In this document: one piece after another, positions 44,278-48,834 of the stretch
Layout: each line of letters begins with the position of its first letter
Numbering within the stretch: position 1 is the first letter of the stretch
Assembly (NCBI RefSeq): GCF_025755255.1
Contig: NZ_JALIEB010000008.1
Span: forward strand, 124,001-188,000
Reading direction: 5' to 3'
From: Roseobacter sinensis
GTDB taxonomy: Bacteria > Pseudomonadota > Alphaproteobacteria > Rhodobacterales > Rhodobacteraceae
DNA length: 64,000 bases
Notes under the pieces: model-generated
What the model saw: only the letters and a program-made list of their open reading frames with translations
Told to the model about the DNA's origin: nothing
Databases searched by the model: none
Translations under genes and position numbers: made by a program

Positions 44278-44526
44278 TCACTCGGGCCCGCGCGCGGCCT
44301 TGCGCGCGCGCCGTATCTGTAATGACACCACCAGCGCCCAGAAGAGCCCCGCCAATGCCGCAAAATCGAAGAGAAACGCGTAGCGCCCGGGCATGCCCAG
44401 CTTCGGCCCCAGCCAGAGCGCCAGCAGCCACAGCCCCATGGTGCCCACGATCACAAGGCTCACCAACCGCCCCTTGGCGGCCAGTGCGCGCTCTTGCGCC
44501 TGCCTGTCCTGATCCTGCGCACTCAT
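44278..44526 (-). CDS. DUF5337 two-helix membrane protein
   Basis: 82 residues with a charged N-terminus (SAQDQDRQAQERALAAKGR) and two hydrophobic helices (about 24-42 and 52-70), a basic tail RRARKAARG. This matches the Rhodobacteraceae DUF5337 proteins that sit beside nuoF. Function unknown. Starts 41 bases after the hairpin-domain protein. Confidence 0.7.
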   Translation of the reverse strand: MSAQDQDRQAQERALAAKGRLVSLVIVGTMGLWLLALWLGPKLGMPGRYAFLFDFAALAGLFWALVVSLQIRRARKAARGPE

Positions 44527-44567: not shown

Positions 44568-45239
44568 CTATCCGCCGCTCGCCAGTTTCTTCGCCTGTCC
44601 GACCCAATCGTCCCGTTCGATCCGGCCCTTGAAGCGCAGCCGTTCATCGACCCAGGCGATATCCTCCTTGGTCAGCGCTGCCACTTGATCGAAGTGCCAG
44701 ATGCCCAGGGAGTTCAGCGTTTCCTCCAGCTTTGGTCCGACACCGCTGATCTTCTTCAGATCATCTGCGCCGCCGTCACGCGGGCCGTCGGTGAAGGTTC
44801 CGGGGCGGTCGGTGTCGGAGGTTACAACGGGCGCCACCTTCTTCGCCACTTTCTTGATGCCCTTGGTCTCAGGCTCTTTCTCGTAGGTCCACTCGCCTTT
44901 GCGAGCGGCCAGTTCCTCTTCCCCGGCCAGCCGCTTCGACGGCTGCACCTTCGGCGCCTCGCTTGCAGTCGTCGGGGCCGAGGCCGTCGCGGGAGCCGGG
45001 GCAGGCTTCGGAGCGGCGGCCACCTCGGCGCCCATGTCAGCCGGGCCGGGCAGTGGCCGGGTCATGATCCAGCTGATGATGGCCCCGAACACGATCCAAA
45101 CAACAAAGCCCGCAAAGGCGCCTTGCATAAAGCCCCAGTCGCCGAGCACCATCAGCAGCACTGCCGCCAAGACACCACCTGCCAAAGCCACGAGCCAGCT
45201 GCCCAGAGCCATCCCGATCATACCTTGATTGTTGTCCAT
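44568..45239 (-). CDS. Membrane protein with C-terminal hairpin domain shared with NuoE
   Basis: 223 residues. Two hydrophobic segments (about 8-30 and 38-60), an Ala/Pro-rich linker, a lysine-rich stretch and a C-terminal domain of about 65 residues (DDLKKISGVGPKLEETLNSL, then FDQVAALTKEDIAWVDERL). The domain is a helix-hairpin-helix-like fold and is about 60% identical by eye to the NuoE C-terminus in the same operon. It may recruit NuoE or bind the same partner. 70 bases separate it from nuoE. Confidence 0.75.
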   Translation of the reverse strand: MDNNQGMIGMALGSWLVALAGGVLAAVLLMVLGDWGFMQGAFAGFVVWIVFGAIISWIMTRPLPGPADMGAEVAAAPKPAPAPATASAPTTASEAPKVQPSKRLAGEEELAARKGEWTYEKEPETKGIKKVAKKVAPVVTSDTDRPGTFTDGPRDGGADDLKKISGVGPKLEETLNSLGIWHFDQVAALTKEDIAWVDERLRFKGRIERDDWVGQAKKLASGG

Positions 45240-45309: not shown

Positions 45310-46323
45310 TCAGGTGGCCTTGTCCTCGGCCAGATCACGGGCCTGCTGCACCCAGTTGTCCCGGCTGACACGGCCCTTGAAGCCTTCGAGGTTCTCGTCG
45401 ACCCAGGCCACTTCCGCCTCGGTCCAGGCCGCGACCTGATCGAAGTGGAAAAACCCCATGGAATGAAGCAGCTTTTCGAGCTTCGGCCCGACGCCCTTGA
45501 TCTTCTTCAGATCGTCCGGCCGGCCTGCGCGCGCCTCGGTCAGGGTCGCCGGCTTCTCGCCGGTTGGCGCTGTCTCGGCCGACTTGGCCGACGGCTGCGA
45601 CGGCGTGTTCGCCGCCTTGGCCTGCCACGGCATGACCAGCGGCACCTCGGTCCCGTCGATCCGCTTGACCGTGTCGCCAATGTCGACCGCAAGCTGCACG
45701 GACGCGTTGTACTGGGTCTTGCCGCTGTCGTAGTCTGTCAGCGAGGTCAGCCCCTTGAGCGGTTCGGCCGCGTAGCGACCGTTCTGGGGGCCCGGGACCG
45801 GCACCTTGCCCGCCGCCAGTTCGTCGATGATCTCCCCCATCCGCTCGGCGGTCAGATCCTCGTAATAATCCTTGCCGATCTGAGCCATCGGCGCGTTCGA
45901 GCAGGAGCCGAGGCACTCGACCTCCTCCCAGGAGAAATTCCCGTCCGCCGACAGCGCATGCGGCTCGGGCGCGATCTTCTCCTTGCAGACGGCGACAAGG
46001 TCCTCCGCTCCGCAGATCATGCAGGAGGTCGTCCCACAAACCTGAATATGCGCAATTTTCCCAACGGGTTGCAGCTGAAACATAAAGTAGAATGTCGCGA
46101 CCTCCAGCGCCCGGATATAGCTGAGCCCCAGCATATCCGCGACCGTTTCGATCGCCGGTTTGCTGAGCCACCCCTCCTGCTCTTGCGCGCGCCACAGGAG
46201 CGGAATGATCGCCGACGCTTGCCGCCCCTCGGGGTATTTCGTGATCTGCCCCTCGGCCCAAGCGAGGTTGGCGTCGGTGAACGCGAAACTGTCGGGTTGG
46301 TCGGGATGAAGTCTGCGGAGCAT
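45310..46323 (-). CDS. nuoE: NADH-quinone oxidoreductase subunit E with C-terminal hairpin extension
   Basis: 337 residues. The N-terminal 170 residues form the thioredoxin-like domain with the [2Fe-2S] cluster cysteines in [14 protein letters not shown] and [10 protein letters not shown]. About 100 extra linker residues and a C-terminal domain ([36 protein letters not shown]) follow. E. coli NuoE is only 166 residues. Such extended NuoE is typical of this bacterial family. The ATG at 46323 has AAAGGA 8 bases upstream. Confidence 0.96.
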
Positions 46324-46362
46324 GTCAGTGTCCTTTGGGTGCCTCACGGCACGTCGATGTCG

Positions 46363-46626
46363 TCAGAGGCGGTGAACCGCTTCGTGAGGTTTGGCGTTTG
46401 TCCAAAGACGCGGGGACGTATCGCAGTGTCCACCGTTCGGACAGATCTCAGGCGCCTCATAGCACTCCGCACCCGGGCCCGGATTGGTCCAATACTTCGG
46501 CGTTTCACAGGCCGGCCGCTCTGCCTGCTGCGTCTCGAGCGGTGCGGTCCCATCGGGGCCATCAGCAAACTTCAGGACCAGAGCCAGCGCCACGCAGAGG
46601 CCAAGCGCAATCATCCGGCCCGTCAT
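46363..46626 (-). CDS. Small hypothetical protein between nuoD and nuoE
   Basis: 87 residues: a hydrophobic N-terminal segment (about 4-20, an anchor or signal), then a cysteine-containing Pro-rich part ([30 protein letters not shown]). Five cysteines suggest disulfides or metal binding in the periplasm. Overlaps the nuoD stop by 4 nt (ATGA). No known family. Confidence 0.6.
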
Positions 46627-47843
46627 CGGTCAATCTCCCCGAAGACCACGTCCATGGTGCCGATGATGGCCGCCACATCGGCCAGTTGGTGGCCCTTCGA
46701 GATATGGTCCATCGCTTGCAGGTGCAGGAACCCCGGCGCGCGCAGCTTGGCGCGGTAGGGCCGGTTGGTGCCATCGGCCACGAGGTAAACGCCGAACTCG
46801 CCCTTCGGTGCTTCGACCGCGCAATAGACCTCGCCCTCGGGCACGTGGAAGCCTTCGGTGTAGAGCTTGAAGTGGTGGATCAGCGCTTCCATCGACTGCT
46901 TCATATCCTTGCGGCTGGGCGGGGTGATCTTGCCGCGGGCAAGGATGTCGCCCTGCCCCTCCGGCGCGCGCAGCTTTTCGATGGCCTGTAGGATGATGCT
47001 GACCGACTGGCGCATCTCCTCCATGCGCACGAGGTAGCGGTCATAGCAATCGCCATTCTTGCCCACGGGGATCTGGAAGTCGAACTCGTCGTAGCACTCA
47101 TAGGGCTGCGCGCGGCGCAGATCCCAGGCGAGGCCACTGCCCCGCACCATCACGCCGGAGAAGCCGTATTCGAGGATATCCTCTTCGGTCACGATCCCAA
47201 TATCCGCGTTGCGCTGCTTGAAGATGCGGTTCTCGGTGAGCAGCCCGTCAATATCCGCCATCACCTTCGGGAATTCCTGCGCCCAGGTCTCGATATCGTC
47301 GAGCAGTTCGGGCGTCAGGTCCTGATGCACCCCACCGGGGCGGAAATAGGCCGCGTGCAACCGCGCGCCGCAGGCGCGTTCATAGAAGATCATCAGCTTT
47401 TCGCGCTCTTCGAACCCCCAGAGCGGCGGGGTCAGCGCGCCCACGTCCATCGCCTGCGTGGTCACGTTCAGCAGGTGGTTGAGCACCCGCCCGATCTCGC
47501 AGAAGAGCACGCGGATGAGGGAGGCGCGGCGCGGCACCTCCACGCCGGTGAGCTTCTCGATGGCCAGACACCAGGCATGCTCCTGGTTCATCGGCGCCAC
47601 ATAGTCGAGCCGGTCGAAATAGGGCAGGTTCTGCAGGTAGGTCCGGCTCTCCATCAGCTTTTCAGTGCCGCGATGCAGGAGGCCAATGTGCGGGTCACAG
47701 CGCTCCACGATCTCGCCGTCCAGCTCCAGCACCAGCCGCAAAACTCCATGCGCCGCAGGGTGTTGCGGCCCGAAATTGATGTTGAAGTTGCGGATCTTCT
47801 GTTCACCCGTGAGGGCGTCGTCGAATTTGGAGCCGTCCATCAT
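46623..47843 (-). CDS. nuoD: NADH-quinone oxidoreductase subunit D
   Basis: Quinone-site subunit, 49-kDa family, 406 residues. [41 protein letters not shown] and [14 protein letters not shown] are the recognised stretches; they are derived from [NiFe]-hydrogenase large subunits but lack the nickel cysteines. GGAGG stands 7 bases before the ATG at 47843. The start overlaps the preceding miniprotein stop (ATGA). Confidence 0.98.
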
Positions 47844-48043
47844 GCGCGTTCCTCCGTTGTTTGAACCGGATCACGAAATGCAAAAATCCAACAGAATATG
47901 AAAACAAAAGCCGGATTGACTGCCGGAATCGCCCACCACTTTGACATTCCGAATTTCGGCAACAGCATCCATATGGGCGTCGCAAATACTGCCGCCATTA
48001 TGAACACTAGAACTACCGAAGGAAGCCCGAGGTCAAATCCCAT
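47840..48043 (-). CDS. Small membrane protein of the nuo operon, paralogue B
   Basis: 67 residues. Two hydrophobic segments (about 10-30 and 38-55). The core P-x3[12 protein letters not shown] (residues 23-38), with a downstream P and an FAF run, is the same as in the gene just upstream (48043), which reads P-x3-LLPFFGINKYWA. The pattern is also found in many small two-helix bacterial membrane proteins. Its stop overlaps the nuoD start. Coupled to the paralogue by TGATG. Confidence 0.7.
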
Positions 48044-48216
48044 CACCGCTTCTCCAGTTCTTGCAGCTTCAGACCCATCCACCACAGCAGGGCAATCGTG
48101 CCCAGCGGGATCAGGCAGGCCGCGGCCCAGTATTTGTTGATGCCGAAGAACGGCAGCAGCTTGACCATCGGGATGGCCGTGAGCGCCGACAGGACCAGCC
48201 ACCAGAAGCCACCCAT
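48043..48216 (-). CDS. Small membrane protein of the nuo operon, paralogue A
   Basis: 57 residues, read by hand from TAGATG after nuoC to TGATG at the paralogue B start. It opens MGGFWWLVLSALTAIP; the core P-x3-LLPFFGINKYWA lies at residues 16-31; a second helix (about 37-48) and a charged end KLQELEKR follow. Directly abutting nuoC with no space. Function unknown; co-translation with nuoC and nuoD suggests a stoichiometric assembly factor or accessory subunit. Confidence 0.65.
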   Translation of the reverse strand: MGGFWWLVLSALTAIPMVKLLPFFGINKYWAAACLIPLGTIALLWWMGLKLQELEKR

Positions 48217-48834
48217 CTACTTGGCCTCCGCTTTCTCGTCCGCCTTGTCATCGCCGGGCAGGATGTACTCCGCCCCCTCCCAGGGGCTCATGAAGTCGAA
48301 CTGCCGGTATTCCTGCACCAGGCTCACCGGCTCGTAGACCACACGCTTCTGCGCCTCGTCATATCGCACCTCGGTGTAGCCCGTGGTCGGGAAGTCCTTG
48401 CGCAGCGGATAGCCGCGGAAGCCGTAATCCGTGAGGATGCGCCGCAAATCCGGGTGGCCGGAGAAGAGGATGCCGAACATGTCGAAGACCTCACGCTCGA
48501 ACCAGTTGGCCGAGGGGTGCACCGAGATGATCGACGGCACCATCGCCTCCTCGCGGATACTCACCCGCAGCCGGATACGGTGGTTCTGGTACATCGACAG
48601 CAGGTGATAGACCACGTCGAAGCGCTTGGCGCGCCCGGTGTAGTCCACCGCCGTGATGTCCACGAGCGTCGAGAACTGGCAGGTCGCATCCGCCTTCAGG
48701 AACTCCACCAGCCCGGTGATGTTCGAGGGCGTGACATCGAGGTTCAGCTCACCATGGGTCACATCCCAGGCCAACACGCAATCCGTGCGTTTCGCCTCGA
48801 TATAGCCGCCCAGCTCGTTCAATGCGTCAGACAT
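48217..48834 (-). CDS. nuoC: NADH-quinone oxidoreductase subunit C
   Basis: 30-kDa subunit of the peripheral arm, 205 residues. [10 protein letters not shown], the family signature [31 protein letters not shown] (cited in parts, residues 110-140) and PLRKDFP are present. The C-terminus is Lys/Asp-rich. The stop TAG abuts the ATG of the next gene. Confidence 0.98.

What the first reader, a model, noticed from the sequence alone, without database searches (positions are those of the whole stretch)
47840..48216. Tandem paralogous miniproteins between nuoC and nuoD
Two adjacent genes of 57 and 67 codons share the core pattern P-x3-LLP-x-FG-x2-K-x-WA and both form two helices. The first abuts the nuoC stop with no gap, the second overlaps the first by one base and overlaps nuoD by 4. 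They look like a duplicated small membrane partner of the quinone-site subunits NuoC/NuoD, made in step with them. The same pattern is seen in many small bacterial membrane proteins of unknown role.
Basis: partly seen in the sequence, partly recalled or inferred. Interest (0 to 1): 0.75.

Follow-up and report, generated by a model that had tools for sequence, protein, structure and literature searches.

The report
Paired miniproteins inside complex I operon
Between two genes of its main respiratory enzyme, this marine bacterium carries two tiny related membrane proteins: one is a conserved but undescribed companion of that operon in many relatives, the other looks like a recently acquired cousin, and what they do for the enzyme is still unknown.

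Summary
Two tightly packed genes (57 and 67 codons) lie between nuoC and nuoD and are homologous; AlphaFold2 predicts helical hairpins for both. I found no Pfam, NCBIfam or PDB-sequence family for either. In 140 genomes of the window's family, all 37 strong profile matches (34 genomes) lie in the nuo operon: 36 downstream of nuoC, one between nuoF and nuoG; 13 weak matches lie elsewhere. ORF1 is under purifying selection (dN/dS 0.03-0.16 in 15 comparisons).

The interpretation needs correcting. ORF2 is not a fresh copy of ORF1: it fits a sister subfamily better, has foreign codon composition (GC3 0.49 against 0.88), and sits in a variable slot before nuoD that in relatives is empty or filled by 19 kinds of ORF. 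Against Roseobacter sp. H9, ORF1+ORF2 are 98% identical but nuoB/C/D only 85-89%, so the cassette was probably exchanged recently. Wider relatives in other Alphaproteobacteria mostly stand in tandem (21 of 30 loci), often beside rlmN or argG; two of six tested reach the DUF805 threshold.

Best reading (0.45): a dispensable accessory or assembly factor of complex I. This rests on location and selection only; 99 of 133 surveyed genera have none between nuoC and nuoD.

The parts
48217..48834 (-). nuoC (NADH-quinone oxidoreductase subunit C)
   Evidence: NCBIfam NF004733, 344.6 bits
48225..48229 (-). GGAGG, ribosome-binding-like site of ORF1, inside the end of nuoC
   Evidence: sequence; function inferred
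48043..48216 (-). ORF1, 57 aa, type-1 miniprotein; predicted helical hairpin
48052..48055 (-). GGAG, ribosome-binding-like site of ORF2, inside the end of ORF1
   Evidence: sequence; function inferred
47840..48043 (-). ORF2, 67 aa, divergent type-2 miniprotein; GC 0.48, GC3 0.485; fills the variable slot before nuoD
47851..47855 (-). GGAGG, ribosome-binding-like site of nuoD, inside the end of ORF2
   Evidence: sequence; function inferred
46623..47843 (-). nuoD (NADH-quinone oxidoreductase subunit D)
   Evidence: NCBIfam NF004739, 618.4 bits

Best explanation
ORF1 and ORF2 are two members of one superfamily of 55-75-residue, two-helix membrane proteins. In the Rhodobacteraceae examined, that superfamily is found almost only inside the complex I operon, mostly between nuoC and nuoD. 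Shown: homology, position, tight packing with overlapping or abutting reading frames, purifying selection on ORF1, the foreign composition of ORF2, and the near-identity of the pair with that of Roseobacter sp. H9 against diverged flanks. Inferred: the two are translated in step with NuoC and NuoD and insert in the membrane as hairpins. Also inferred: ORF1 is a dispensable accessory of complex I, either a peripheral membrane subunit or an assembly and stability factor for the joint between the Q module and the membrane arm. ORF2 is a second, horizontally acquired member that may pair with ORF1 or modulate it. The pairing idea leans on the wider family, where two such hairpins usually stand in tandem and the second resembles the last two helices of the four-helix DUF805 domain.
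For: In 140 genomes, 37 of 37 strong matches (E up to 2.4e-14, 34 genomes) lie in the nuo operon: 36 within 2 kb downstream of nuoC on its strand, one between nuoF and nuoG. With ORF1 alone as query, all 31 matches examined with E up to 0.002 lie just downstream of nuoC; with ORF2, 30 of 32 do and one of the other two is the nuoF-nuoG copy. All 80 named loci kept (best 80 of 145) carry a type-1 gene beside nuoD, 79 with nuoC on the other side and one cut off by its contig end. ORF1 dN/dS is 0.03-0.16 in 15 comparisons. One member stands between nuoC and nuoD in a genome of another family (L306). A second family member beside the first recurs: window/H9, L123, L146, L106, L138.
Against: 99 of 133 surveyed genera have no member between nuoC and nuoD, and in 23 of these the two genes overlap by 4 bases, so complex I works without it. 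The Paracoccus denitrificans complex I structure names only NDUFS4, NDUFS6, NDUFA12 and a PIMT as extra subunits (passages of PMC11522691); whether Paracoccus carries the gene was not tested. No PDB chain sequence matches (the one low E-value is a repeat artefact in a lectin). nuoC-nuoD and nuoD-nuoE are loose junctions in general, so position alone may be weak evidence. The wider family sits beside rlmN/argG, which have no known link to complex I. The profile was built mostly from nuo-linked rows, and 13 weaker matches (E 7e-6 to 0.009) lie elsewhere. ORF1 distances follow NuoD distances poorly (Spearman 0.12, 65 of 999 permutations as high) and NuoC distances only modestly (0.27).
Confidence: 0.45

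Rival explanations
1. Passenger: a general small membrane protein, with no contact with complex I, that settled in a permissive junction of a strongly expressed operon and stayed there by descent.
For: Wider relatives stand beside rlmN and/or argG motifs in 16 of 30 loci. nuoC-nuoD and nuoD-nuoE junctions take up many unrelated genes, whereas nuoA-B and nuoB-C stay tight. Presence is patchy: at least 21 changes on a weakly supported NuoD tree.
Against: The strong family members in 34 genomes are all in the nuo operon, in one genome at two separate places, and second members repeatedly join the first, which a passenger does not explain well. ORF1 is stable while its neighbour slot turns over.
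Confidence: 0.33
2. The pair is mainly a translational relay: short frames with overlapping stops and starts that carry ribosomes from nuoC to nuoD, the peptide itself being of little account.
For: Frames abut or overlap, each start has a ribosome-binding-like site, and many slot ORFs of different sequence also end in a 4-base overlap with nuoD.
Against: ORF1 protein sequence is strongly conserved at non-synonymous sites with 13 invariant positions among 29 genomes; a relay would not need that. Many genomes overlap nuoC and nuoD directly (23 of 132).
Confidence: 0.12
3. Recent tandem duplication in this lineage.
For: Adjacent genes, shared motif, true homology.
Against: ORF2 scores 57.5 bits on its sister subfamily (without itself) against 32.4 on ORF1's; GC3 0.485 against 0.879; other genomes have a type-2 gene alone (16 of 133).
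Confidence: 0.05

Closest known systems
DUF805 (PF05656)
   Same: Second members of the rlmN/argG tandem pairs match its last half, profile positions about 47-100 of 111, at 30.3 and 26.1 bits against a cut-off of 25.7; those pairs align with types 1 and 2 by profile comparison.
   Different: ORF1 and ORF2 do not match DUF805 at all. They are half as long, with two helices. The link is transitive only.
DUF5684 (PF18936)
   Same: Weak match of one pair member, 23.1 bits against a cut-off of 27.4.
   Different: Below the curated cut-off; ORF1 and ORF2 do not match.
Tandem hairpin proteins beside rlmN and argG in other Alphaproteobacteria (no family name found in the libraries searched)
   Same: Profile-profile probability 88.9-97.4% with types 1 and 2, nine reversed controls at most 2.3%; tandem arrangement in 21 of 30 loci, the window locus included.
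   Different: Different neighbours; C-terminal tails end in a W-P motif instead of KLQELEKR (type 1) or AFKD (type 2).
Supernumerary subunits of Paracoccus denitrificans complex I (NDUFS4, NDUFS6, NDUFA12, PIMT)
   Same: Accessory proteins of the same enzyme in the same bacterial class (PMC11522691, passages).
   Different: Those act on the hydrophilic arm; no sequence match of the miniprotein profiles to any PDB chain beyond artefacts.
DUF5337 (PF17272)
   Same: Another small protein of unknown function in the same operon (window 44281-44526, 102.9 bits).
   Different: Another family; ORF1 and ORF2 do not match it.

Membership tests
DUF805 (PF05656) | Score at or above Pfam's gathering cut-off | tested here: not met
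   No match of ORF1 or ORF2 up to E 10; DUF805 not among the 11 families listed for the 29 type-1 members up to E 1
DUF805 (PF05656) | Full-length domain (profile of 111 positions) | tested here: not met
   57 and 67 aa; AlphaFold2 models show one hairpin each
DUF5684 (PF18936) | Score at or above Pfam's gathering cut-off | tested here: not met
   No match of ORF1 or ORF2 up to E 10
Superfamily of tandem hairpin proteins (rlmN/argG pairs) | Significant profile similarity over the hairpin | tested here: met
   HHalign 88.9-97.4% against reversed controls of at most 2.3%
Superfamily of tandem hairpin proteins (rlmN/argG pairs) | Location beside rlmN or argG | tested here: not met
   In the window the genes lie between nuoC and nuoD
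Complex I supernumerary subunit or assembly factor | Encoded with complex I genes across genomes | tested here: met
   37 of 37 strong matches in 34 of 140 genomes
Complex I supernumerary subunit or assembly factor | Physical presence in the complex or an assembly intermediate | not testable with these tools
   No structure holds it; complexes could not be modelled
Complex I supernumerary subunit or assembly factor | Effect of its loss on complex I | not testable with these tools
   Needs a deletion strain

The most novel reading that the evidence does not exclude
Rhodobacteraceae complex I has an undescribed, exchangeable membrane module. A conserved hairpin (ORF1) docks where the quinone module meets the membrane arm. 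A swappable second hairpin (ORF2 here) pairs with it into a split, four-helix, DUF805-like unit that tunes the enzyme, and the nuoC-nuoD junction is a recombination site at which such modules are traded between strains.
Probability: 0.15. Interest if true: 0.8.

Novelty: new variant of a known kind. Interest (0 to 1): 0.52.

Why it matters
Complex I is among the best studied membrane enzymes, and Alphaproteobacteria are used as models of the mitochondrial one. A selected, operon-bound miniprotein family with no Pfam, NCBIfam or PDB counterpart here would be an overlooked accessory factor testable with one deletion and one pull-down. The variable slot beside it suggests that complex I operons trade small accessory genes between strains. 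The tandem hairpins also suggest how a four-helix DUF805-like domain could be split into, or built from, two small genes.

Tried and rejected
Profile search of PDB sequences: none for type 1. For type 2, a lectin (6gxr) with whole-sequence E 2.6e-6 was rejected because it is the sum of seven tiny repeat matches of at most 6 bits each, and a glyoxalase was at E 0.86. Foldseek of the ORF1 model against the PDB: 3 matches, best E 3.7, none meaningful, although one is a chain of a plant supercomplex I+III2 (E 6.2). A small hairpin gives little to search with.

Pfam and NCBIfam matches of single members below cut-off were rejected as chance.

ORF1 distances against NuoC/NuoD distances gave only a modest correlation with NuoC and none clear with NuoD, so strict vertical descent is not shown. 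The NuoD tree has 8 well supported inner branches of 129, so its count of changes is rough.

In one search the nuoD comparison is void, because an insertion near the start threw the naive codon alignment out of frame; with a proper alignment replaces it. One search was a first gap listing with wrong orientation for part of the loci; one search replaces it. One search failed with a script error and was redone.

Literature: no paper on these miniproteins, or on DUF805, DUF5684, DUF5337 or DUF5333 with the terms used, was found. The library holds only open-licence PMC papers, so this is no proof of absence. Seen only as passages: PMC11522691, PMC8115037, PMC4859585; none of these passages mentions a gene between nuoC and nuoD.

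Rows dropped: 2 of 135 genomes with a nuoC match (G030 split, G155 truncated) were left out of the gap survey. L132 and L142 were not located by the ORF1 pattern (78 of 80 used). 72 of 80 loci were used. The slot ORFs are simply the longest ATG/GTG frame of at least 30 codons, so some singletons may not be genes.

Full report
What is there. On the minus strand, nuoC (48834-48217) is followed without a gap by ORF1 (48216-48043, 57 aa), which shares one base with ORF2 (48043-47840, 67 aa), which shares four with nuoD (from 47843). NCBIfam confirms NuoB, NuoC, NuoD and NuoF in the window. Each of ORF1, ORF2 and nuoD has GGAG(G) 7-8 nt before its start. Leave-one-out profiles give ORF2 57.5 bits on its own subfamily and 32.4 on ORF1's, and give ORF1 43.7 on ORF2's subfamily; the best of about 2000 shuffles is 10.6 to 12.8. 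AlphaFold2 gives one hairpin each, the second helix kinked: ORF1 pLDDT 87.6, ORF2 77.4.

Link with complex I. A search of 295 genomes of the window's family with ORF1 and with ORF2 gave matches whose fetched loci (29 with ORF1 beyond the window's own, 29 with ORF2) hold nuoC and/or nuoD. For genomes whose nuoC place was known, ORF1 matches lie just downstream of nuoC in 31 of 36 cases. The five others have E 0.0025 or worse. ORF2 matches do so in 30 of 32; of the two others one is the nuoF-nuoG copy described below. With a broad profile of 22 members, 45 of 140 genomes have some match at E 0.01 or better. The 37 strong ones (E up to 2.4e-14, 34 genomes) are all in the nuo operon: 36 within 2 kb downstream of nuoC, and one in G130 between nuoF and nuoG. 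Thirteen weaker matches (E 7e-6 to 0.009) lie elsewhere and are mostly partial; the best of them (G002) may be a true distant member. That profile was built mostly from nuo-linked rows, so it may under-detect others. In the named collection 145 stretches encode a relative of type 1 and the best 80 were kept. All 80 stand beside nuoD, 79 with nuoC on the other side and one at a contig end. The closest titles are Roseobacter species, so the window is inferred to be a Roseobacter relative.

How common. In 133 genera with a readable nuoC end, 34 have a member between nuoC and nuoD: 16 type 1 only, 16 type 2 only, 2 both. The other 99 have none there, and in 23 of 132 the two genes overlap by four bases with nothing between. 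Presence is more clustered on a NuoD tree than shuffled labels (21 changes against a mean of 29.4, 0 of 500 shuffles as low), but the tree is weakly supported. The gene is therefore accessory.

Selection. ORF1 against 15 relatives has dN/dS 0.03-0.16, and 13 positions are invariant in 29 genomes. ORF1 diverges faster than its neighbours (mean amino-acid difference 0.28 against 0.20 for NuoC and 0.11 for NuoD), and its distances follow NuoC's only modestly and NuoD's hardly at all. For ORF2 the only close copy is in Roseobacter sp. H9, with two synonymous and two non-synonymous differences, too few to judge.

ORF2 is an arrival, not a fresh copy. Its GC is 0.48 and GC3 0.485 against 0.62 and 0.88 for ORF1; the lowest of 1384 windows of 68 codons in six other nuo-operon ORFs is 0.72. 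Type-2 genes stand alone in many genera. The space between ORF1 and nuoD is a variable slot: of 78 named loci, 27 have at most 60 bases there, and 51 hold sequence whose longest ORFs fall into 19 sequence clusters. By eye these include NTF2-like, sulfotransferase-like and GFA-like proteins and several kinds of tiny membrane protein; those names are recalled and were not searched. Five of the 51 hold a second member of the miniprotein family (L093, L106, L123, L138, L146). Between the window and Roseobacter sp. H9, ORF1 and ORF2 are 97.7% and 98.0% identical while nuoB, nuoC and nuoD are 84.9%, 88.7% and 85.8-88.4%. Synonymous differences are 5 of about 89 sites against about 48 of 142 in nuoC (Fisher p 3e-7). 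Other Roseobacter loci are closer to the window in nuoB (91-92%) but have different slot contents. The simplest account is a recent exchange of the ORF1-ORF2 cassette by recombination. nuoC-nuoD and nuoD-nuoE are loose junctions in these genomes (43 of 79 and 27 of 74 gaps over 300 bases), nuoA-nuoB and nuoB-nuoC tight ones (3 of 77 and 3 of 78).

Wider family. In the class, 36 of 269 genomes have a match at E 1e-6 or better. Of 30 loci read, 21 (the window included) carry two or more members in tandem, up to four. An rlmN motif stands near 12 of 30, an argG motif near 7 and either near 16; NCBIfam confirms rlmN and argG in the three loci tested. Profile comparison gives type 1 with type 2 99.3%, type 2 with first and second pair members 97.4% and 96.5%, type 1 with them 88.9% and 89.1%; nine reversed controls reach at most 2.3%. 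Two of six pair members tested pass the DUF805 cut-off over its second half, and one comes near the DUF5684 cut-off. ORF1 and ORF2 match neither. One genome outside the window's family has a member between nuoC and nuoD (L306).

How it probably works. Shown: position, packing, homology, selection on ORF1, foreign make-up of ORF2, tandem habit of the wider family. Inferred: coupled translation, membrane insertion as a hairpin, and contact with complex I during or after assembly. I put 0.45 on an accessory or assembly factor of complex I and 0.33 on a passenger protein that merely lives in this operon. The known extra subunits of Paracoccus complex I do not include it (PMC11522691, passages only); whether Paracoccus has the gene was not tested.

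Verdict. The thing is new in the libraries searched but of a recognisable kind: a small operon-bound membrane protein family with DUF805-like relatives.

Noticed in passing
window 47840-48043 and L092-L171 between ORF1 and nuoD: The stretch before nuoD is a variable accessory slot: 51 of 78 named loci hold extra sequence there, whose longest ORFs fall into 19 clusters.
   Followed up: partly
window 47840-48216 against L093 (Roseobacter sp. H9): The ORF1-ORF2 cassette is 98% identical while the flanking nuo genes are 85-89%, a sign of recent recombination.
   Followed up: partly
L305 5700-5930 (G130): A second member of the miniprotein family lies between nuoF and nuoG in the same genome that has one between nuoC and nuoD.
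   Followed up: yes
L319 (G322): Four hairpin proteins of the wider family stand in a row downstream of rlmN, with an argG motif further on.
   Followed up: partly
window 44281-44526: A DUF5337 protein of unknown function lies just upstream of nuoF.
   Followed up: no
window 45310-46347 and 44568-45239: NuoE and a separate neighbouring protein end in similar helix-hairpin-helix-like tails, matched only below the Pfam cut-offs, as if the tail had been copied within the operon.
   Followed up: no
window 46363-46626: An 87-codon ORF between nuoD and nuoE with several cysteines and no Pfam match at E 0.01; poorly conserved among Roseobacter relatives.
   Followed up: no
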